Shown here piece by piece: positions 1,565-18,739 of a stretch of 35,291 nt of DNA (positions within the stretch are counted from its first letter, which is position 1; each line of letters opens with the position of its first letter). A model generated the notes under the pieces. It worked only from the letters and a program-made list of their open reading frames with translations. It ran no database searches and had not been told where the DNA came from. A program made the position numbers and the translations under genes. Source of the stretch: a bacterium HR15 (lineage in GTDB: Bacteria > Armatimonadota > Fimbriimonadia > Fimbriimonadales > GBS-DC); the NCBI GenBank assembly GCA_002898555.1, contig BEHR01000033.1, positions 1-35,291 on the forward strand, given 5' to 3'.

Positions 1565-2380
1565 ATGGCGATGCGCATCGAAATCGACCACATCTATCTG
1601 ATGGACTGCCGGGAGGGTATGCGTTTGATGCCCGCCGGGTGTGTTGACCTTGTGGTTACCGATCCACCATTTGCTATCGATTTTCGTGCCAAACGCTCCA
1701 ACTACAACCGTACACATTCGCGAGTTCTGGAAGGCTATAATGAGATCCCTAAGGAAGAATATTATAGCTTTACCCTTTCATGGATGCACGAGGTATATCG
1801 CGTGCTTAAAGATTCAGGAAGCATGTATGTCTTTTCTGGTTGGAATAATTTACGGGATATACTGAATGCTCTTGAAGAGATAGGGTTTGAGATTATCAAT
1901 CATATTATATGGAAATATCAATTTGGTGTGTTCACACGTCGTCGCTTTGTTACCTCACACTACCATTGCCTCTATGTTTGCAAAGATGATCGGCTGAGAA
2001 GATTTTATCCAGATAGCCGCTTTCCAGCGGATGCGCGTGATTCCGAAGGAGGCAATGCTCGTTATCGCGATATGGAAGATGTCTGGTTTATTCCACGCGA
2101 GTACTGGAATGGGGATGTCAAAACGCCCACCAAGCTACCTGCAGCGCTGGTTCAAAAAATCTTGCAATACTCGTCTGTTGAGGGGGATGTCGTTCTTGAC
2201 CCATTTCTCGGATCAGGGCAAGTTGCGGTGGTCGCTCAACAGATGAAACGCCGTTACATTGGGTTTGAGATTGTGCCTGAGTATTATCATTTTGCTTTGC
2301 GCAGGTTGCAGGAGGGAGTTTATCGGATTAAAGCGGATCCCATCGAGCCCGCAGAAGATTTACGACTTCCACTGGAGTAG
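1565..2380 (+). CDS. Site-specific DNA methyltransferase, beta-class (probable N6-adenine)
   Basis: This is a SAM-dependent DNA methyltransferase of the N6/N4 family (PF01555 type), about 271 residues. The catalytic motif IV reads VTDPPFAIDF (about residues 31-40) and precedes the SAM-binding motif I LDPFLGSGQVAVVA (about 211-224). That order, with a target-recognition region in between, is the beta class. DPPF favours adenine-N6 over cytosine-N4 methylation, although only biochemistry would prove it. KTPTKLPAALVQKIL before motif I is the usual motif X region. The gene is visibly richer in A/T than hisC and accAD. It converges, 1 bp apart at the stops, on a gene that looks like a restriction endonuclease, so the pair is probably a Type II restriction-modification system acquired by transfer. 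Two in-frame ATGs (1565 and 1571) are possible starts. Confidence 0.9.
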   Translation: MAMRIEIDHIYLMDCREGMRLMPAGCVDLVVTDPPFAIDFRAKRSNYNRTHSRVLEGYNEIPKEEYYSFTLSWMHEVYRVLKDSGSMYVFSGWNNLRDILNALEEIGFEIINHIIWKYQFGVFTRRRFVTSHYHCLYVCKDDRLRRFYPDSRFPADARDSEGGNARYRDMEDVWFIPREYWNGDVKTPTKLPAALVQKILQYSSVEGDVVLDPFLGSGQVAVVAQQMKRRYIGFEIVPEYYHFALRRLQEGVYRIKADPIEPAEDLRLPLE

Positions 2381-2381
2381 C

Positions 2382-3002
2382 CTATGGGATGTAGTTGACT
2401 AAAATTTTTGTATCCTTTAATATCTCCTTGGCAACAACACGGCTTACCAACTCACTGGATGCAGTATCTTGCATGGACGATGGAACGGCACACTGAATCA
2501 GATACTGTGGGTGTTGTTCCAGGAAGTTTCGTAAAGCTGTATAGCGTAGAACTATTGCATCAGTAGCACGCCTAATATGCTCTCGACCGATAAGTTCGGG
2601 ATCAGCATATCCAATGCCAACTTTGTGCAACACAAAGATGGTCGCTGTCTCCCAAGCCGTTTCAGAAGATGCACCAAGTACATTGATCAACCGAATATCA
2701 CCCGCACTGCTGAAGTGGCCTTTAACCGAAAAGCCGCCCTGTGGTATCTTGATATCGATTCGTTGCTCGGTCATGCCGACATCCTGTGCTTGAACACCAG
2801 CAGCGCGCAGCGCGGTCACTAAAATGACCTCAAGTACTCCACCCACGATGAACCGGTTTTCGCGGATTGAGGTCGCAAATCGCCCAAGCAGCTGCTGAAG
2901 GGTCTGCTCAATATCCTCGCGTAGCCCGGGATTGTTCTCTACTTCATGCTTCAGTTGAGCGAATGCTTGGCGTTCTCTTGTAAACTTGAATGTCTTTGCC
3001 AT
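2382..3002 (-). CDS. Putative Type II restriction endonuclease, partner of the adjacent methyltransferase
   Basis: This 206-residue protein converges on the methyltransferase. I recognise no exact family; the restriction-enzyme call rests mainly on position and A/T-rich base composition. Possible PD-(D/E)XK-like elements are a helix with Glu58 (VGGVLEVIL), Asp83 in RIDIKIP, and Lys94 in FSVKGHF, with Ser where Glu or Asp usually stands two residues before the lysine. The ATG at 3002 is preferred because GGGAGA lies just upstream on its strand and the protein then begins MAKTFKFTRERQ; a longer frame would overlap the cstA end. It follows cstA on the same strand, its start codon lying 14 bp past the cstA stop. 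It could also be an uncharacterised accessory gene. Confidence is high that it is a gene and moderate for the function. Confidence 0.6.
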   Translation of the reverse strand: MAKTFKFTRERQAFAQLKHEVENNPGLREDIEQTLQQLLGRFATSIRENRFIVGGVLEVILVTALRAAGVQAQDVGMTEQRIDIKIPQGGFSVKGHFSSAGDIRLINVLGASSETAWETATIFVLHKVGIGYADPELIGREHIRRATDAIVLRYTALRNFLEQHPQYLIQCAVPSSMQDTASSELVSRVVAKEILKDTKILVNYIP

Positions 3003-3016
3003 ATCATTCTCCCGGC

Positions 3017-4738
3017 TCACTCCCTGCCGCTGGAACCCTCCACGCGCACTGCTATACCGCCACGCTGCCATGCCAGCAACGCCTCGCCCACCAGCCAGAG
3101 CGCAAGCAGCAAAATCACCCCGCTGAAACCGAACAGGAGCCAGTTACCTTGCGCCCAGAAGCCCTGCATGCCCAGCACCAACGCGGAGATGGTCACCACC
3201 AGCATAAACGCCATCGGCAGCAGGGTGTAGCGCGTCGGACGCCCCAACGAGCGTAGATAGAGCGAGACGACCAGCAACGCCAGTGCTGCCAGCAGCTGAT
3301 TTGACGCACCAAACAGACTCCACAAAATCGTGCCCACCGACTTCATCTGCCCAGTGACAGGATCGGGCGCCTTGAGCAGGGCAAAGAAGCCGATAATGCT
3401 TACAGTAACTACCGTTGCAAGGTAGGGATTGCCCAAAGCGGGCAGGCGCAATGCACGGCTCAGCTCTTGCGTGTTGTAGCGGATAAGGCGTGCGCCTGTG
3501 TCCAGCGTGGTCAACGCGAAGCCGATGGCGACCGTCGCCACGAACACCTTCGCCACCTCCAGCGGTATGCCCGTCATGCTCACAATTGCGCCCGCGCCAT
3601 GCACGAAGTTCGCCAGGGCATTTTTGCCCGCGATGAGCCAGTCGCTATAACGCGTGCCCCACTCCGCGCCCAGTCCCGCCGCGACTGCCATCAGCGCGAG
3701 CGTTGCCAGCAAGCCCTCCGTCAACATCGCGCCATAGCCGATAGGCAGCGCGTGCGACTCGCGAGCCAGCTGGCGCGAGGTGGTGCCCGATGCAACCAGT
3801 GAATGAAACCCCGACACCGCCCCGCATGCGACCGTGATGAACAGAATCGGGAACAACGGCTGCAGATTCTTCGCTTCAAAGTAGAACGCGGGGGCAGTGA
3901 TTTGCGGGCGGCCAAGCAGCACGCCCACCAATAGCAGTCCCATGCCCAAGAAAAGCTGAAACGAGTTCAGATAGTCGCGCGGCTGCAACAGCAGCCATAC
4001 AGGCAACACCGCTGCCAGAAAGGCGTACACCAACAGAATAATTGTCCAGCGGTCAGCGGTCAGTTCAAAGCCGCCAATTGTCGTTATCGGCATGCGCACG
4101 CCCAGCCACACAAACAGCAAACTCAGCATCACTCCGCCCAGCGTGAGCCAACCCAGTTGGGCACGCAGCCGATAGAATAGCAATCCTATCGCCACCGCAA
4201 TCGCGACCAACATCGCGCTGGGCAGCACCGCTTCAGGCACATGACCGCTTTCTGCCCCACCTAAGCCGGGCGCAAAGAGATTGGCAATATTAATTACAAA
4301 CACCCCCATCGCCAGCCCTATTGCAAAGATACCAAACAGTAAAAAGAGTACCCGCGCTCGCGCCCCCGCCACATCATAGGCAATATCGGCAACGGTGCGC
4401 CCTTGATTGCGAATCGAGCTGTACAGACAGCCCAAATCATGCACCGCGCCAATCAGGATACAGCCCAACACAATCCACAGCAGGGCAGGAACCCAACCCC
4501 AGATGACCGCAATCGCCGGTCCGAGCAGCGGCCCCAGCCCGGCGATGGAAGCGAAGTGATGCCCAAATAGCACGAGAGGCGGCGCCGGTACATAGTCCAC
4601 CTCGTCGCGAAGGGTGTGGGCGGGTGTCGGCTGCGAATCATCTAACGGGAACACCCTTCGCGCCAGGAACCGCCCGTAAACGCGATACGCCAGCCCCAAT
4701 AGCACCGCAACACTTAGCACAATCAGCAGCGCGTTCAT
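3017..4738 (-). CDS. cstA: CstA-family carbon-starvation / peptide-pyruvate permease
   Basis: This is a multi-pass inner-membrane protein of about 573 residues and more than a dozen hydrophobic segments. It is shorter than E. coli CstA (about 700) but like the short CstA forms of other phyla. The diagnostic N-terminal block FGHHFASIAGLGPLLGPAIA is present, followed by VHDLGCLYSSIRNQGRTVADI. A further conserved block, CGAVSGFHSLVASGTTSRQL, lies mid-protein. Family members import peptides or pyruvate when carbon is limiting; the substrate here is not determinable. The ATG at 4738 is chosen because GAGAGGCGG precedes it and a TATAAT box lies 18 nt upstream; a longer frame would run through that promoter. 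The gene lies 81 bp downstream of mutS2 with its own promoter. Confidence 0.9.
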   Translation of the reverse strand: MNALLIVLSVAVLLGLAYRVYGRFLARRVFPLDDSQPTPAHTLRDEVDYVPAPPLVLFGHHFASIAGLGPLLGPAIAVIWGWVPALLWIVLGCILIGAVHDLGCLYSSIRNQGRTVADIAYDVAGARARVLFLLFGIFAIGLAMGVFVINIANLFAPGLGGAESGHVPEAVLPSAMLVAIAVAIGLLFYRLRAQLGWLTLGGVMLSLLFVWLGVRMPITTIGGFELTADRWTIILLVYAFLAAVLPVWLLLQPRDYLNSFQLFLGMGLLLVGVLLGRPQITAPAFYFEAKNLQPLFPILFITVACGAVSGFHSLVASGTTSRQLARESHALPIGYGAMLTEGLLATLALMAVAAGLGAEWGTRYSDWLIAGKNALANFVHGAGAIVSMTGIPLEVAKVFVATVAIGFALTTLDTGARLIRYNTQELSRALRLPALGNPYLATVVTVSIIGFFALLKAPDPVTGQMKSVGTILWSLFGASNQLLAALALLVVSLYLRSLGRPTRYTLLPMAFMLVVTISALVLGMQGFWAQGNWLLFGFSGVILLLALWLVGEALLAWQRGGIAVRVEGSSGRE

Positions 4739-11605: not shown

Positions 11606-12301
11606 GTGGAGTCGCATTCGGAGCGTGTGAAGCGTCGGGCGAAACGGCTCGGCAGGCTTATTTACCTTCTGGCACGCGGACTGGGGCGCACCCTACGCCT
11701 CTCGGTGGAGGGTTGGGAACCCATCGAACGACACCTGCAGGAGGGTACAGGCGCGGTGATGGTCACCTGGCATGGACGCACCCTCATCCCCGCCAACTAC
11801 ATGAAGGGCAAGGGTTTCTGGGCGCTCATTTCGCTCTCACGCGATGGCGAGGTGCAGGCGGAGATTTTTCGGCGGTTCGGTTTCCAGATTCTGCGCGGTT
11901 CCACCAGTCGTGGTGGGGTGCGTGCGGCATTAGAAGCCGCGCGTGTGGTCAAAGGAGGTGGCATCCTTGCCTTCACGCCCGACGGACCACGCGGACCGAG
12001 CAAGAAGTTCCAGCCCGGCGCATTACTGATCGCCCAGAAAGCGGGCGTACCTATCTATCCCGCCGGTATCGCCGCCTATCCGCGTATCCTGCTGCCCACA
12101 TGGGACCATTATCTTATCCCGCTGCCTTTTGCCCGCGCTGTTTTTCTGGTGGGCGAGCCGGTCTGGGTGCCGCCGGAAGCCGATAAAGACGACTTTGCTC
12201 GCCTTGCGGAACAGTTGGAAGGGGCGATCAACGCGCTGGAAGCCCGTGCCGAGCATCTCGCCCGCTACGGCAGACGCGCCTCCAGGGAGGGAACACCATG
12301 A
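11606..12301 (+). CDS. DUF374-family lysophospholipid acyltransferase-like protein
   Basis: A 231-residue protein of the DUF374 group within the PlsC/LPLAT superfamily. HGRTLIP replaces the HX4D acceptor motif (TWHGRTLIPANYMKGKG, about residues 52-68). The block LSRDGEVQAEIFRRFGFQ and the very characteristic TPDGPRGPSKKFQPGALLIAQ follow. Family members probably acylate lipid A precursors or related outer-membrane lipids, though the reaction is not settled. The adjoining KDO transferase gene, overlapped ATGA-style, supports a role in lipid A/LPS assembly. The GTG start at 11606 rests on the TATAAT box 6 nt upstream. Confidence 0.88.
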   Translation: MESHSERVKRRAKRLGRLIYLLARGLGRTLRLSVEGWEPIERHLQEGTGAVMVTWHGRTLIPANYMKGKGFWALISLSRDGEVQAEIFRRFGFQILRGSTSRGGVRAALEAARVVKGGGILAFTPDGPRGPSKKFQPGALLIAQKAGVPIYPAGIAAYPRILLPTWDHYLIPLPFARAVFLVGEPVWVPPEADKDDFARLAEQLEGAINALEARAEHLARYGRRASREGTP

Positions 12302-13611
12302 GACTCCTCTATAACCTATTTCTGCTGCTGTCATCGCCCCTTTGGCTGGCATACACCCTGGCGCGTATCCTCGGTGGCTCATGGCGCGAGCGTTGGTGGG
12401 AGCGGTTCGGCTTCCTGTCGATCCCGCCACCAACGCACAGACGCCGTCTGTGGGTGCATTGTGTCTCGGTGGGCGAGACGCTTGCCGCGTTGCCCGTGCT
12501 GAAAGAGCTGCGCAAAGCGCTGCCCGATTACGAAATCGTGCTGACCACGACGACGCCCACGGGTCAGCGCACGGCGCGCGACTCGGCACACTCTTGGGTG
12601 GATTATATCGCCTACTTTCCCCTGGATCTGCCCTTCGCGGTGAATCGCGCCCTGTCGCGCATTCAGCCCGACGCGCTGCTGCTGTTTGAGACGGAGCTGT
12701 GGCTCAACCTGGTGCATGCCCAGCATCGGCGGGGTGGGCTGGTGCTCATCCTGAATGGACGATTGAGCGACCGCAGCTTCCGACGAGCGCACTCTCTGCG
12801 GGCATTCTATCGGACCGTGCTGCGTTTCATCGATTTCGCCTGCGTGCAGTCGCCCACCGACGCGCTGCGCTTCATCGAGCTGGGTCTGTCCCCCTCGCGC
12901 GTGGAGGTAGTGGGCAACACGAAGTTTGATCAAGCGCTGGAAGCCACCGATGCCAACCCTGACGAATGGCGGGCGCGCCTTTCGCTGCCTCCCGATGCCC
13001 CTGTGATTGTGGTCGGCAGCACACGCACCCCCGATGAGGAGCGATTGATTGCCGAAGCGTATCGGGAGGTTCGAAACGCCCTGCCACAGACCTGCCTGGT
13101 GCTTGCGCCGCGCCATCTGGAGCGTGTGCCCGAAGTGGAGCGCCTATTGCAAGAGCAAGGACTAACCCCTGTACGCCGCACGCAACTGCCCCTGCCCATA
13201 GGGCAATTCGCACAGGTGGTGCTGGTAGACACCTTTGGTGAATTGGCGCATATCTATAGCGTTGCGGATGTGGCGGTGGTGGGCGGCGCGTTCGCCCCCT
13301 TAGGGGGACAGAACTTGTTCCAGCCGCTGGCGCACGGCAAGCCCGTCTTTTTTGGTCCGCACACGCACAACTTTCGTGATATTGCCCAACTGGCAAAAGA
13401 GGCGGGAGTCGGCTTCGAGGTGCATACCGCAGGCGAACTCAGCGAAGGGATCCTGCGCCTCCTGCGCGGCGAAAAAGCGCGTCAGGACATCGAGACGCGC
13501 GCCCGTGAACTGATTGCTCGCCACCGTGGCGCTGCCCGCCGCTGCGCCCAGTATGTCAAGCAATGGATCGAACGTACCCATCACACCTTTGCGAAGATGA
13601 AGTGGGTATAA
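12298..13611 (+). CDS. waaA: 3-deoxy-D-manno-octulosonic acid (KDO) transferase
   Basis: A GT30-family transferase adds KDO from CMP-KDO to lipid IVA at the inner face of the cytoplasmic membrane. The 437-residue length is typical. An N-terminal hydrophobic anchor (about residues 3-22) precedes the GT-B fold. The catalytic-base segment WVHCVSVGETLAALPVL is present, with the family glutamate in VGE. LTTTTPTGQRTA, LLLFETELWLNL, LILNGRLSDRSF and VVGNTKFD are further hallmarks. The C-terminal donor domain has VVGSTRTPDEE, LVLAPRHLERV and the acidic/Gly-rich VVGGAFAPLGGQNLFQPLAHG. The ATG overlaps the stop of the acyltransferase gene and has AGGGAGGG upstream, so the two are translated together. 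The stop codon lies inside a TATAAT box that serves the next gene. Confidence 0.95.
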   Translation: MRLLYNLFLLLSSPLWLAYTLARILGGSWRERWWERFGFLSIPPPTHRRRLWVHCVSVGETLAALPVLKELRKALPDYEIVLTTTTPTGQRTARDSAHSWVDYIAYFPLDLPFAVNRALSRIQPDALLLFETELWLNLVHAQHRRGGLVLILNGRLSDRSFRRAHSLRAFYRTVLRFIDFACVQSPTDALRFIELGLSPSRVEVVGNTKFDQALEATDANPDEWRARLSLPPDAPVIVVGSTRTPDEERLIAEAYREVRNALPQTCLVLAPRHLERVPEVERLLQEQGLTPVRRTQLPLPIGQFAQVVLVDTFGELAHIYSVADVAVVGGAFAPLGGQNLFQPLAHGKPVFFGPHTHNFRDIAQLAKEAGVGFEVHTAGELSEGILRLLRGEKARQDIETRARELIARHRGAARRCAQYVKQWIERTHHTFAKMKWV

Positions 13612-13612
13612 T
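13607..13612 (+). promoter_or_regulatory. -10 box (TATAAT) overlapping the waaA stop codon
   Basis: A perfect TATAAT contains the waaA TAA (13609-13611). The predicted start near 13619 gives a leader of about 70 nt before the ATG at 13688, which has a good GGAGGT ribosome site. This gene is therefore leadered, unlike many neighbours. Confidence 0.5.
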
Positions 13613-13687
13613 TCGCGCGAGCATGCACTGATGCGAAGGCTTAGTATATCGCAATCGGTGGAAACGAGGCGACGATGGAGGTAAGCG

Positions 13688-16600
13688 ATGCCGACATTTA
13701 AGGAAGTAATTCGTGAGATACAAAGTAGGACCGTGCAGATCTATAGGGAGGAGCCTTCTCGCATCGAACGGGATGCGCGTACCACCCAAAGCACTATTCA
13801 GGATTATATTGGTCGCTGGCTGTGGGAGCTACTTCAAAACTGTGACGATGCACACGCCGACAAAGTACATATTTATGTATCTAAAGAGGAGAAAGTGTGT
13901 CTCGTTGCAGACAATGGGCATGGTTTCAAAGCGGAATCGATAGAGGCGATTCGTGGCGCGCATTTTTCCGACAAAAAAGAGGGAGGCACCATCGGGCGTA
14001 AGGGCGTTGGATTCAAATCGGTCTATCATATTACCCAATCGCCCAAAATCGTTCTTGTAAATGGTGAAGGTGTGGAGTTCGATAGTTGCAAATGTCAGCA
14101 GTGGATGAGAAAGCATAAATTGAACAACAAGTACAACCCTTATCATTGGGTCCCCTTTCTCGTCCGCTGGAAAGAATTGGCGAATCGCTTCCCCAAGCTA
14201 CAGCAACTGTGTGATGAATACAAAACGGTGGTGATTTTACCCTACAAGGGAATGGATACCCACACCAATATCATTCAGGAACTAAAAAACCTGAAGCCCT
14301 ATTTCCTGCTTACCTTCCACCACTTGCAATCCATCATTATCGAGATGGATGGTAAGACGCGACATCTTCAGATTACCCCCAGAAAGGAGCCAGAAAGTAC
14401 GGGATGGATAGAAAGGACCATAACAGATAGTGGCAAGCAGACCACTTTTCGTGTTATGGAACAACTAATAAAAGGCGAAGAACTTCCTGATGAATATATT
14501 AATGATTTAGATGAAGATAGCCGAAGTTTCATTCGTAAAGGAGGTATTTCTCTGTTGGTTGCTGCCCACATGGAGGAAAGCAGAGTGAATCCTTGCGACG
14601 GCTATTATCCAATACATGTTTTTTATCCCACCAACCACATTGCTCCTGTTCCTTTGCTACTCCATGGCGAGTTCCTTATTAAGAGCGACCGAACTACCAT
14701 GCTACCGATAAAACAAACGCCCCTGAACGACTGGGTTGCGCAACAATTGGCAAAGCTGGTACTTGAGTTTGTAGATAAAGCCCACTCGGAGAAGACTCCC
14801 AGCCACTACCTCACTCTACTCACGCCGTATCAGCATATGGATGACGATGCAAAATGTATTTGGGAATATATCGTGAAGGAAGCAAAGCAGCATCTAAAGC
14901 TTCCCGACTTGGATGGGGCAAAAACGCTTACCTGTGAAGAGGCAGTTTTTATTGCTGGAAATTGTACCGACCATTCAAGGGCGCGGCAGATCATTGAGGG
15001 AACAGACGATAAGAAAAAGCTAATTCATGCATCTACTGATAGCAATGCAAAAGCAATTGGAACGCTTAACGCCATTGGGGTCAAAGCAATCATGGACGAA
15101 CAAGTTATTAGTCGCATTCGCAAGAATGCCCAGCAAAAAGCAGGTGACTATGACTGGCTTTGGACCTGCTGGCAGTGGGTGAGCCGATGGCTTATGAAGG
15201 ATTATTACCGGAGGCGTTGCGACGTACGCAGCCTACCTCTGATCCCTGTTAATGGAACAGTTTACAGCTACGATAAAATAAAAGACGCCGTATTTGCCTT
15301 GCCGAGCAAATACAGCAGCGATCTTCCATCTTGGCTGATTGCCCCGTCGGGCCCCGCATATATTGTGGATGTAGGCTTCGCAGAAAAGTTAGCTAAGGCG
15401 ACTGCAAATGGGAATGAAAAACGGCTCATTGATGTACTGGAACTGCGAGGGTTTGATGAAGATAAATTAATAGATGCATTAAAAAAAGCGATAAAAACTT
15501 TCTGGGAAGATAATCAGAAGGCGGAGCCTTACCGCTTTATCCAATTCATCCTCCAGCGTGCCAAGAAGCATGGATGGCAACGCCTTTCCGATCTCGGGGA
15601 CTGCCCTGTACCTGCATATGAGGTCACGAATCCGAATGTGATACAACCCGTCCAAGCCCAGTGGGTCTACTTTGGAGCGGAGTGGGGCAACCAAGAGATG
15701 GAAGAGTTTTATAGAGGTGTGAGTGGTGTTTACTTTTTGCATGCAGATGAAACTTTAAAAATTGCTAATATGAAGAAGAAGATAAAAGCTATCCTTCAGC
15801 AGATAGGAGTTAAGGCACACCCAATAGTTTGTTATACATGGACTACTGCTTGGCAAGCTATGGAGTGTCCTGAATGCTCACAAGAATGGAGTAGATATTT
15901 TCAAGAGCAGCGTGAAAATAGTACTCGCGATGAGCAAGTGCAAATCATGTATCTCGATAGCATAGATTTTGAAAGATTAAAATCTCAATCAATTTATTTG
16001 ATTAAAATCATATCAAAAAACTGGAATAATTATTATAAAAATAGATCAAAAGCAGAATATAAATGGTTTTATTATCATCGGGAAAGCAAGCAAATCGATG
16101 CTTGCTGGTGGTATGACCTTCGATTCAAGCTTTGCCTGCCGTTAAAGGGAAGGTATTGGCAAGGTAAGCGCATCCCTCTCTCCAAGTGCTGGCTGCCTGA
16201 CAAAGAAACAGAGGAGAAGCTGGGAAATTTCTTACCTATAATTGACCTCTCCAAGTTTGGCGATGAGCAAACAAGTAAACAAATAGCGGACTGGCTAATC
16301 AGGGAGGTCGGTGTGCGTACACGGATAGCAGAGCTGACAGGAGATGATTGGTATCAGATTATTGCGCATCACCTCCCTGCGCAGGTATCGGAAGAGAAAG
16401 CCAATCGATCAGAAGAGTGTCGTAAACGGGCATATAACTGCTACAAAGCTTTCCTTGACTGGGCTCAGGATCGGCAAGAGGTTGACCAGAAGTTTAAAAA
16501 ATGTAAGTTGTTATGTCGATATCAAGGTAAATATACATATAAACTTACAAGGAGTGTTATCTATTTCGATGACGATCCCGACAGAACACAACACTTCATG

Positions 16601-17944
16601 GATACAATCTGCGTTTTTGATCTGCCCTCAAACTACAAGTCACCAGCCGAGAAATATTTTGGAATCGTTCCTGTAAGCAAGGAAATCAAACGAGAGATTA
16701 TTCATGGCGACAATTGCAAATTGCTGGATGAGCAGTATAGGGAACAGGTCAATAGGGTTTTGCCCTATATTTATGCGGTACGCTGTCACGAGGCGCCCAA
16801 GAGTGCTGAAGAGACGCTTAAAAAGTTGAAAAATCTGGAATTCTATGTTGAGGATTCACTTGGCGAACGACTATCTCTGGCAGGTTATACCAAAGAAGTT
16901 AGTGATATCGGATGGGCTTGTGAGGAGATTAAACAGAACGGAAAAATCCGTATCTATCTGAAGCAGGCACAGAAACACTATATCGCTTCGGCGATTGCTG
17001 AGGTGTTAGGTGTACCCACGCAAGCAGACTTTTATGAGAACTTGCTGGGCACTCAAGAGGAAAGAGATATAGAGAAACGCTTGTTTAAAAAAGGATTGAA
17101 TTCGAGTGATGTCAAAGACGCATTGAATAGATGGCGCGATGATGAACGGCGTGAACACCGTGATGAGGAGCAGCATGAGCACATCGATAGTGAACAGCAG
17201 GAACACATCAGCGAGAGTCTCACCTCCACCGATGATATTCAAAACTTGCAGGATGAGTTGCTACCATCCAACGCAAAATCCAGGGAAATGTCCGTCAGGA
17301 TTCCTCACGAATCGAAACCGACTGGTGGCACGACTGTCGGTGGCGGTCTACAAAGAGGTGGTGGGGCATCCCCGCCGCCGGGGTCGCCTGCCTCCGATGG
17401 TGAGCTGCACCTTATAGATCCTGAAAATTGCTCTTATGGTGTTAAGGTTGGTGTTAAGGTCGGCAGGTTAGAAAACCTACCGCCTAAGGAATTCTATGAT
17501 TCCGATCACGGCACGAGGGCATCTGATGCTCATCCACAATCCCGCTTGACCCCTGAACAGCGGGAGCTGGTGGAGCAAACTGGGCGACAGCTGGTTCTTC
17601 GGTACCTTAGAGAGCAAGGTTATGAAGTGAAGGAACAGCCTACCTCCCAACCTGGCTACGACATTTTAGCGAAAAAAGATGGGCAGGAATATCATATCGA
17701 AGTGAAAGCCCATATTGGCAAGGCATGGACGGTCACCTTGACGGTGAGGGAGTACCACGAGTACGCAAGCCAGCAGGGCTATCGATGGCAACTGTGGAAT
17801 GTGGAAGATCTCGAGGCAGGCAAAACCCCCATGATAACCATCTATACAGATATACCCGTCGAAGCGTTAGAAGCGCAATCCTTTAAGGTTGACCTTCGTC
17901 GTTGTTCAGGTTTAATCGCGGATGAAAGGGAGAGGGCACCTTAG
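13688..17944 (+). CDS. Giant sacsin/MORC-like GHKL ATPase with C-terminal DUF3883-like PD-(D/E)XK nuclease domain
   Basis: A 1418-residue protein. The N-terminal GHKL (Bergerat) ATPase is complete: N-box WELLQNCDDAHA with Glu47, Asn51 and Asp54; G1 box DNGHGF (75-80); G2 loop GRKGVGFKS (103-111). This is the arrangement of sacsin and of plant NO VEIN-type proteins. The middle (about 250-1130) is unassigned and rich in Trp, Lys and Tyr. A charged His/Glu-rich linker and a Gly/Pro stretch (about 1140-1240) lead to a C-terminal domain (about 1285-1400). There Asp1325 (GYDIL), Glu1338 and Lys1340 (IEVKAH) form a D...ExK nuclease-like triad, as in DUF3883. There are no membrane segments. Base composition is clearly A/T-richer than the flanking genes, so it was probably acquired. 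A defence or DNA-processing role is inferred from architecture only. The start is set by GGAGGT 13-8 nt upstream. Confidence 0.85.
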   Translation: MPTFKEVIREIQSRTVQIYREEPSRIERDARTTQSTIQDYIGRWLWELLQNCDDAHADKVHIYVSKEEKVCLVADNGHGFKAESIEAIRGAHFSDKKEGGTIGRKGVGFKSVYHITQSPKIVLVNGEGVEFDSCKCQQWMRKHKLNNKYNPYHWVPFLVRWKELANRFPKLQQLCDEYKTVVILPYKGMDTHTNIIQELKNLKPYFLLTFHHLQSIIIEMDGKTRHLQITPRKEPESTGWIERTITDSGKQTTFRVMEQLIKGEELPDEYINDLDEDSRSFIRKGGISLLVAAHMEESRVNPCDGYYPIHVFYPTNHIAPVPLLLHGEFLIKSDRTTMLPIKQTPLNDWVAQQLAKLVLEFVDKAHSEKTPSHYLTLLTPYQHMDDDAKCIWEYIVKEAKQHLKLPDLDGAKTLTCEEAVFIAGNCTDHSRARQIIEGTDDKKKLIHASTDSNAKAIGTLNAIGVKAIMDEQVISRIRKNAQQKAGDYDWLWTCWQWVSRWLMKDYYRRRCDVRSLPLIPVNGTVYSYDKIKDAVFALPSKYSSDLPSWLIAPSGPAYIVDVGFAEKLAKATANGNEKRLIDVLELRGFDEDKLIDALKKAIKTFWEDNQKAEPYRFIQFILQRAKKHGWQRLSDLGDCPVPAYEVTNPNVIQPVQAQWVYFGAEWGNQEMEEFYRGVSGVYFLHADETLKIANMKKKIKAILQQIGVKAHPIVCYTWTTAWQAMECPECSQEWSRYFQEQRENSTRDEQVQIMYLDSIDFERLKSQSIYLIKIISKNWNNYYKNRSKAEYKWFYYHRESKQIDACWWYDLRFKLCLPLKGRYWQGKRIPLSKCWLPDKETEEKLGNFLPIIDLSKFGDEQTSKQIADWLIREVGVRTRIAELTGDDWYQIIAHHLPAQVSEEKANRSEECRKRAYNCYKAFLDWAQDRQEVDQKFKKCKLLCRYQGKYTYKLTRSVIYFDDDPDRTQHFMDTICVFDLPSNYKSPAEKYFGIVPVSKEIKREIIHGDNCKLLDEQYREQVNRVLPYIYAVRCHEAPKSAEETLKKLKNLEFYVEDSLGERLSLAGYTKEVSDIGWACEEIKQNGKIRIYLKQAQKHYIASAIAEVLGVPTQADFYENLLGTQEERDIEKRLFKKGLNSSDVKDALNRWRDDERREHRDEEQHEHIDSEQQEHISESLTSTDDIQNLQDELLPSNAKSREMSVRIPHESKPTGGTTVGGGLQRGGGASPPPGSPASDGELHLIDPENCSYGVKVGVKVGRLENLPPKEFYDSDHGTRASDAHPQSRLTPEQRELVEQTGRQLVLRYLREQGYEVKEQPTSQPGYDILAKKDGQEYHIEVKAHIGKAWTVTLTVREYHEYASQQGYRWQLWNVEDLEAGKTPMITIYTDIPVEALEAQSFKVDLRRCSGLIADERERAP
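17438..17461 (+). repeat. 12-bp tandem duplication in the linker of the GHKL-DUF3883 gene
   Basis: GGTGTTAAGGTT is followed directly by GGTGTTAAGGTC, giving the peptide repeat GVKVGVKVG between the Gly/Pro-rich linker and the nuclease-like domain. It is in frame and probably neutral. Confidence 0.7.
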
Positions 17945-17973
17945 AGCAGTAAACCGAAGCCATCCGCGACGGG

Positions 17974-17979
17974 TATAAT
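17974..17979 (+). promoter_or_regulatory. -10 box (TATAAT) of the M48 protease gene
   Basis: A perfect TATAAT ends 16 nt before the ATG at 17996. The predicted leader of about 10 nt contains GGAGGC, so this is a short-leadered rather than leaderless gene. Confidence 0.6.
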
Positions 17980-17995
17980 TCCTCTTTGGAGGCAA

Positions 17996-18739
17996 ATGAT
18001 GAGGCGCACAGGCAAATGGAGGTGGCTGCTCCTTCTGCCATTGGCAGGGTTAGCCCTCACAGGCTGTAAAGGCACCCTCTGGAGCAAAAAGGATGAGGTG
18101 CGCATCGGCAAAGAGGTCAGCCTTGAGGTCGAGAAAGCCTATAAACTGGACCCGAACCCCGCGCATCAGCAGCGGGTGCAGCTTATTGGGCAGCGGTTGC
18201 TGACCGTCGCCAAAGTGGAGCCTTATGAATACACCTTCAAGGTGCTGGACTCTGAAGAGGTGAACGCCTTCGCCCTGCCAGGAGGTCCCGTCTATGTGAT
18301 GCGCGGGCTGCTGGAGATGGTGGGCAACGACGACGATGAACTGGCTTGCGTCATCGGACACGAGTTGGCACACATCAACCGCCGCCATGCTGCCAAACAG
18401 GTCACGCGCGGCACATGGGCAAGCGTCCTTATCGCCCTCGGCACCAAAGGCAAGGTGCGCGACATCGCCGAGATCTCCGCCGCGTTGCTCCAGCTCAAAT
18501 ACAGTCGCAATCAGGAGTATGAAGCCGACCGCTTAGGACTGGAATACGCCTATCAATCGGGTTATGACCCCAACGGCATGATTCGCTTTTTCCAGAAGCT
18601 GCTGGCGAAGCAGAAGGAAGGCGACAAGGGTATCCTGGCAAACTTGCGCACCCACCCGCTGACCGAGAACCGCATCTGGCGTGCCCGCCAGCATATCGAA
18701 AAGCTCACTGGGAAGCCTGCGCAGGAGGCGAAGCCGTGA
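17996..18739 (+). CDS. M48-family zinc metalloprotease, lipoprotein
   Basis: A 247-residue protein with a lipoprotein signal peptide: basic MMRRTGKWRW, hydrophobic core, lipobox LTGC with Cys24. It should be anchored to a membrane facing the periplasm. The zinc site HELAH (His122, Glu123, His126) lies in CVIGHELAHINRRHAAKQV, and the downstream acidic ligand is in RNQEYEADRLGLEYA. The FALPGGPVYVMRGLLEMV segment upstream is typical of the Oma1/BepA-like M48 branch. The C-terminus LRTHPLTENRIWRARQH is also typical. It lacks the TPR extension of BepA, so a small Oma1/LoiP-like quality-control protease is the closest analogy. The next gene starts inside its stop codon (GTGA), so the two form an operon. 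Confidence 0.92.
   Translation: MMRRTGKWRWLLLLPLAGLALTGCKGTLWSKKDEVRIGKEVSLEVEKAYKLDPNPAHQQRVQLIGQRLLTVAKVEPYEYTFKVLDSEEVNAFALPGGPVYVMRGLLEMVGNDDDELACVIGHELAHINRRHAAKQVTRGTWASVLIALGTKGKVRDIAEISAALLQLKYSRNQEYEADRLGLEYAYQSGYDPNGMIRFFQKLLAKQKEGDKGILANLRTHPLTENRIWRARQHIEKLTGKPAQEAKP

What the first reader, a model, noticed from the sequence alone, without database searches (positions are those of the whole stretch)
13688..17944. Single-gene GHKL ATPase plus PD-(D/E)XK nuclease: candidate undescribed defence system
Seen: intact Bergerat ATPase boxes at residues 47-111, an ~900-residue unassigned middle, a disordered linker, and a C-terminal GYD...IEVK triad (Asp1325, Glu1338, Lys1340). Known: GHKL ATPases (MORC, MutL, Hsp90, sacsin) act as ATP-driven clamps, and DUF3883 domains occur in NO VEIN-like and defence-associated proteins. 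Inferred: ATP-gated DNA clamp delivering a nuclease, restricting phage or plasmids as a stand-alone gene. It is A/T-richer than its neighbours and sits between housekeeping envelope genes, as a cargo gene would.
Basis: partly seen in the sequence, partly recalled or inferred. Interest (0 to 1): 0.8.

Follow-up and report, generated by a model that had tools for sequence, protein, structure and literature searches.

The report
Tiamat-family single-gene anti-phage ATPase–nuclease
A bacterial genome carries, dropped between two cell-envelope genes, one large gene for an Hsp90-like ATPase joined to a DNA-cutting domain; it belongs to the already described but mechanistically unexplained Tiamat family of anti-phage proteins, so it is a useful clean example rather than a new system.

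Summary
ORF 13688-17944 (1418 aa) has all four Bergerat (GHKL) motifs at its N-terminus and a C-terminal NOV_C/DUF3883 domain with the E1296–D1325–E1338-x-K1340 nuclease motif. AlphaFold models give a GHKL-plus-transducer module (residues ~20-413, closest to Hsp90 and sacsin) and a Holliday-resolvase-like PD-(D/E)XK fold. 'Undescribed' does not hold: the protein matches PADLOC's TmtA (Tiamat) models over nearly its whole length (E=6e-97; E=4e-65 over 98% of one profile). A GHKL ATPase fused to a PD-(D/E)XK nuclease is already published as a defence protein (VcSduA, both active sites needed). The gene is a low-GC insertion: three genera of the same family have the waaA–M48 pair with nothing between, and an 11-bp direct repeat flanks the insert. 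About eleven homologues are scattered over several phyla; in two, the gene or a remnant sits directly upstream of type I-E cas genes. Broader homologues lie next to R-M and DISARM genes; matched control stretches do not. Best reading: a horizontally acquired Tiamat protein, an ATP-gated dimeric clamp controlling a nuclease. The defence role is well supported by context; the mechanism is inferred. New member of a known kind.

The parts
13688..17944 (+). tmtA-like gene, 1418 aa: GHKL/sacsin-type ATPase plus NOV_C PD-(D/E)XK nuclease
   Evidence: ORF; Pfam, NCBIfam, PADLOC TmtA matches; full-length homologues
13745..14926 (+). residues 20-413: GHKL ATPase plus S5/transducer-type middle module
   Evidence: AlphaFold model pLDDT 85.7; VIA-align Z 16.3 to HSP90B over 20-407 (rmsd 4.8, 294 aligned), 15.2 to sacsin SR1 (rmsd 2.8, 179 aligned), 14.7 to MORC4, 14.1 to MutL
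13826..14020 (+). residues 47-111: Bergerat motifs I-III (E47/N51, D75-G77-G79, G103-G108)
   Evidence: E47, N51, G103, G106, G108 invariant across nine distant homologues
14927..17089 (+). residues 414-1134: ordered alpha/beta middle region, no named family
   Evidence: ordered in the model, no Pfam family above its curated cut-off; not folded or searched on its own
17102..17218 (+). residues 1139-1177: one long helix before the linker
   Evidence: DSSP of the model
17546..17914 (+). residues 1287-1409: NOV_C/DUF3883 PD-(D/E)XK nuclease domain (E1296, D1325, E1338, K1340)
   Evidence: AlphaFold model; VIA-align Z 10.6 to the SPARDA nuclease (rmsd 3.4, 113 aligned), 9.9 to Hjc (rmsd 2.5, 107 aligned), 8.9 to DpnI; E-D-ExK invariant in seven homologues
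13604..13614 (+). left copy of GGGTATAATTC, overlapping the waaA stop codon; likely a -10 element or insertion-site repeat
17971..17981 (+). right copy of GGGTATAATTC, just upstream of the M48 gene's GGAGG
12298..13611 (+). left flank: waaA/kdtA (KDO transferase)
   Evidence: Pfam Glycos_transf_N 1.3e-61; neighbour of the M48 gene with nothing between in G001, G005, G002
17996..18739 (+). right flank: M48 peptidase
   Evidence: Pfam Peptidase_M48 2.2e-34

Best explanation
The gene encodes a Tiamat (TmtA) family single-gene anti-phage protein acquired by horizontal transfer. The N-terminal GHKL ATPase with its Hsp90-like middle module dimerises when ATP binds and closes as a clamp on a target (phage DNA, or a phage-specific nucleic-acid or protein complex). 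The large middle region recognises the target, and the ATP cycle positions or unleashes the C-terminal Hjc-like PD-(D/E)XK nuclease, which cleaves nucleic acid. Shown here: the architecture, intact active-site residues, predicted folds, family membership, insertion, and defence-type neighbourhoods of relatives. Inferred: dimerisation, gating, the target and phage restriction.
For: TmtA profiles match over 4-1188 (6e-97) and 5-1384 (3.7e-65, profile 4-1279 of 1302); no other PADLOC family matches at E<=1. Folds. Both active sites are conserved in homologues from other phyla. Insertion into a conserved gene pair. Scattered distribution: none in 17 other genomes of the same family, near-full-length relatives in Nitrospinota, Planctomycetota and BRC1 MAGs. 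Subfamily members sit directly upstream of type I-E cas genes in L114 and L118. 84 ORFs around eight broader homologues match 60 PADLOC models at E<=1e-20, with type I R-M, DrmA and DrmD among the leaders, against 7 for 84 ORFs from control stretches of the same genomes. Published analogue: VcSduA needs both its GHKL and its nuclease residues (PMC12137116).
Against: No activity has been measured for this protein. In this window its neighbours are housekeeping genes, not defence genes. The TmtA models are broad: all nine match the window protein, and a survey using Tiamat models picked up plant genes (PMC12409356). The cas adjacency is seen in only two related lineages, with one copy frame-broken and one a remnant. 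The PADLOC count is inflated by redundant methyltransferase models and rests on broad homologues, not the core subfamily.
Confidence: 0.75

Rival explanations
1. Abortive infection: ATP turnover and the middle region detect a phage product, after which the nuclease degrades DNA or RNA indiscriminately and the cell dies or stalls.
For: The nuclease domain's best structural match is the SPARDA nuclease, solved as activated filaments (titles); some relatives replace the nuclease with an SF2 helicase (L088, L089), as expected of a sensor with exchangeable effectors.
Against: The best architectural analogue, VcSduA, protects at all tested multiplicities with the host surviving (PMC12137116). The next structural matches are structure-specific or target-specific nucleases (Hjc, DpnI).
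Confidence: 0.3
2. Housekeeping DNA repair or chaperone function (MutL-, Hsp90- or Hjc-like) rather than defence.
For: The folds are those of MutL/Hsp90 and Holliday-junction resolvases; neighbours in the window are envelope genes.
Against: No match in 17 other genomes of the family, different base composition, an insertion into a conserved gene pair, relatives in cas, R-M and DISARM contexts.
Confidence: 0.1
3. A decayed or passenger gene with no present function.
For: Base composition not adapted to the host; related copies in L114 and L116 are frame-broken and L118 is a remnant.
Against: 1418 open codons, all catalytic residues retained, full-length alignment to homologues.
Confidence: 0.07

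Closest known systems
Tiamat (TmtA; Millman et al. 2022, named from own knowledge and from PMC12926258 and PMC10482375)
   Same: Single large GHKL/sacsin-type ATPase; near-full-length profile match including the NOV_C end (PDLC03972)
   Different: The core subfamily here (28-43% identity to the window protein) is divergent; the best-scoring TmtA profile (PDLC03964) covers only residues 4-1188 in one stretch
VcSduA / Shedu type I-D (paraMORC3)
   Same: N-terminal GHKL ATPase, clamp-like middle, C-terminal PD-(D/E)XK nuclease, one stand-alone gene, both active sites essential (PMC12137116)
   Different: Its nuclease is DUF4263, not NOV_C; VcSduA's catalytic lysine is K557 against K1340 here, so the window protein has a far longer middle
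NO VEIN (plant) and other DUF3883 proteins
   Same: NOV_C domain above Pfam cut-off; DUF3883 was proposed as a novel restriction-endonuclease domain fused to SNF2 helicases (PMC3710099)
   Different: NO VEIN is a plant developmental protein (own knowledge); helicase-fused DUF3883 proteins lack the GHKL ATPase
Sacsin
   Same: SACS-type ATPase domain, Z 15.2 to the SR1 structure
   Different: No repeated SACS units, J domain or HEPN domain found here; has a nuclease instead

Membership tests
Tiamat (TmtA) | Match to curated TmtA profile over most of its length | tested here: met
   PDLC03972 profile 4-1279/1302, E 3.7e-65; PDLC03964 9-1185/1538, E 6e-97; all eight core members match
Tiamat (TmtA) | Single gene, no partner gene beside it | tested here: met
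   The insert between waaA and the M48 gene contains only this gene
Tiamat (TmtA) | Protects against phage | not testable with these tools
   Needs plaque assays
GHKL (Bergerat) ATPase | Motifs I-IV and Bergerat fold | tested here: met
PD-(D/E)XK nuclease | E-D-ExK motif and alpha-beta core fold | tested here: met
   (predicted model, pLDDT above 90 over most of the core)
Shedu (SduA) | DUF4263 nuclease domain | tested here: not met
   No DUF4263 in Pfam at E<=0.1, no SduA in PADLOC at E<=1
DISARM / type I R-M | Partner helicase, methyltransferase or specificity genes beside it | tested here: not met
   The genes directly on either side are waaA, an M48 peptidase and a glycosyltransferase
paraMORC3 | Membership of the paraMORC3 sequence family | not tested
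   No paraMORC3 profile at hand; shares the architecture described in PMC2292703

The most novel reading that the evidence does not exclude
The core subfamily (window plus about eleven homologues) is a distinct Tiamat branch whose NOV_C nuclease is gated by an Hsp90-like ATPase cycle and which, in some lineages, works together with type I-E CRISPR-Cas, for example by processing Cascade- or Cas3-generated DNA.
Probability: 0.08. Interest if true: 0.65.

Novelty: new member of a known kind. Interest (0 to 1): 0.35.

Why it matters
Tiamat is listed among systems of unknown mechanism (PMC10482375, PMC12926258). This gene and its close relatives keep both the ATPase and nuclease residues across phyla, and the window copy sits alone in a clean insertion. 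That makes 'ATP-gated nuclease' a directly testable mechanism with two point variants. The link to plant NO VEIN through the shared NOV_C domain may also explain why Tiamat models pick up plant genes in metagenomes (PMC12409356).

Tried and rejected
A single-protein scan of genome and viral collections found no relatives; an alignment-based scan was needed. No match in phage records and only partial, mostly N-terminal matches on plasmids. No tRNA or Rfam RNA in the window; promoter and terminator scans gave counts near those of shuffles. The 11-bp repeat as proof of a target-site duplication: rejected as proof, because the same motif occurs 10 times in the genome against 0 for the reversed control, as a -10 element would, and random window pairs share 11 bases in 8 of 1958 draws. 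A profile match of the middle region to cysteine desulfurase (E 0.004-0.006) was treated as chance. Residues 414-1180 were not folded or searched separately, so no claim of a new fold is made; the VIA-align list contains only GHKL-family chains for the N-terminal model, which is not evidence of absence for the rest.

Full report
Observation. The ORF at 13688-17944 is real, 1418 codons, ATG start, with a GGAGG just upstream. Pfam finds SACS/HATPase_c_3 within 44-123 and NOV_C at 1296-1380, all above gathering score; NCBIfam calls the N-terminus a sacsin-type ATP-binding domain. Motifs are E47/N51, D75-G77-G79, G103-G106-G108 and T180.

What it is. PADLOC's TmtA (Tiamat) profiles match over nearly the whole protein: PDLC03964 at 6e-97 over 4-1188, PDLC03972 at 3.7e-65 over 5-1384 covering 98% of the profile. 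Nothing else in PADLOC matches at E<=1. All eight members of the core alignment match TmtA profiles. Tiamat is listed as a defence system of unknown mechanism (PMC10482375; PMC12926258) and is found in genomic-island hotspots (PMC12629846).

Folds. AlphaFold on residues 1-1180 with 30 sequences gives mean pLDDT 85.7. Foldseek and VIA-align match residues 20 to about 413 to GHKL-plus-transducer modules: Hsp90 Z 16.3, sacsin SR1 15.2, MORC4 14.7, GyrB 14.4, MutL 14.1. These values are close together, so the module is GHKL-type without a clear nearest subfamily by fold. Residues 1230-1418 give mean pLDDT 78, above 90 across most of the nuclease core. They match archaeal Hjc (E 3.6e-4; Z 9.9), the SPARDA nuclease (Z 10.6) and DpnI (Z 8.9). 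D1325, E1338 and K1340 (model residues 96, 109, 111) lie at or on the two core strands. The middle region 414-1134 is ordered but unassigned and was not searched alone.

Insertion. GC is 45.5% against 59.0% in the rest of the window, GC3 47% against 72-78% in the flanking genes. In G001, G005 and G002 (three genera of the same family) waaA is followed directly by the M48 peptidase gene, with about 70-140 bases between the homology matches. In the window the 4.3-kb gene lies between them. In G001 a single TATAATTC lies between waaA and the M48 ribosome-binding site. In the window GGGTATAATTC occurs on both sides of the insert (13604 and 17971). This fits an insertion with an 11-bp flanking repeat, but the motif is also a common promoter-like element in this genome (10 copies against 0 for the reversed control), so it is suggestive only. 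No match to the protein was found in 17 other genomes of the same family.

Relatives. An alignment-guided scan found a coherent subfamily in MAGs of Nitrospinota, Phycisphaerales, other Planctomycetota, BRC1, Binatia, Glassbacteria and Deltaproteobacteria. Three members align over nearly the full length (L108, L109, L111; L108's first ~30 residues read out of frame); others lack one end (L110, L112, L113, L115, L117) or are broken (L114, L116, L118). L114's copy is directly followed by cas3, cas8e, cas11e, cas7e, cas5e and cas6e; L118 has a remnant followed by cas3 and cas8e. L117 lies on a short contig with a WYL regulator. L111, like the window, appears to sit among housekeeping genes (reading of the ORF sequences, not scanned). 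Broader homologues occur on haloarchaeal and bacterial plasmids, one beside SAVED-domain, nucleotidyltransferase and brxL genes. Some carry an SF2 helicase instead of the nuclease (L088, L089).

Neighbourhood test. I took 84 ORFs around eight broader homologues and 84 ORFs from other stretches of the same eight genomes. The first set matched 60 PADLOC models at E<=1e-20, including type I methyltransferase (4 proteins), mad2 (4), type I restriction (3), DrmD and DrmA (2 each); the second set matched 7, led by mad3 (3). The model counts are inflated by redundant models, the control ORFs are on average longer genes picked by the same rule but trimmed to 84, and these homologues are not core-subfamily members, so this supports the superfamily rather than this gene itself.

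Mechanism. The closest tested analogue is VcSduA: GHKL ATPase, clamp-like middle, C-terminal PD-(D/E)XK nuclease. E27A and K557A each abolish protection, and the host survives (PMC12137116). GHKL proteins with C-terminal restriction-endonuclease domains were predicted in 2008, partly as stand-alone genes (PMC2292703). DUF3883 was called a novel restriction-endonuclease domain in 2013 (PMC3710099). By analogy the window protein most likely uses ATP-driven dimer closure to control its nuclease. Target, trigger and whether the cell survives are unknown. It is not a Shedu member because DUF4263 is absent.

Verdict.

Noticed in passing
window 1565-2380 (+) and 2382-3071 (-): A second low-GC patch (46-51%) holds an N6/N4 DNA methyltransferase gene (Pfam 8.5e-44; best PADLOC type II MTase 1.4e-65; nearest solved structure CcrM) facing a 229-aa ORF with no match in Pfam, PADLOC or the PDB: possibly an orphan methyltransferase or a type II R-M pair with an unrecognised endonuclease.
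   Followed up: partly
L114 237-11927 and L118 291-4391: tmtA copy or remnant directly upstream of type I-E cas genes in two deltaproteobacterial MAGs.
   Followed up: partly
L088 9720-13640 and L089 9211-13881: TmtA-like N-termini fused to an SF2 (ResIII-type) helicase instead of NOV_C, suggesting exchangeable C-terminal effectors.
   Followed up: partly
L085 7944-9368 (Hymenobacter plasmid NZ_CP053905.1): A 474-aa sacsin-type ATPase follows SAVED and nucleotidyltransferase genes, with brxL nearby, and may be part of a CBASS-like operon.
   Followed up: no
PMC12409356 (literature, not a locus): A metagenome survey assigned all its plant-sample Tiamat hits to plant genomes; the plant protein NO VEIN, which shares the NOV_C domain, is a likely explanation (inference).
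   Followed up: no
window 13604-13614 and 17971-17981, plus 8 other places in the genome: The extended -10-like motif GGGTATAATTC occurs 10 times in 3.04 Mb against 0 for the reversed control, so it is probably a promoter element of this organism.
   Followed up: partly
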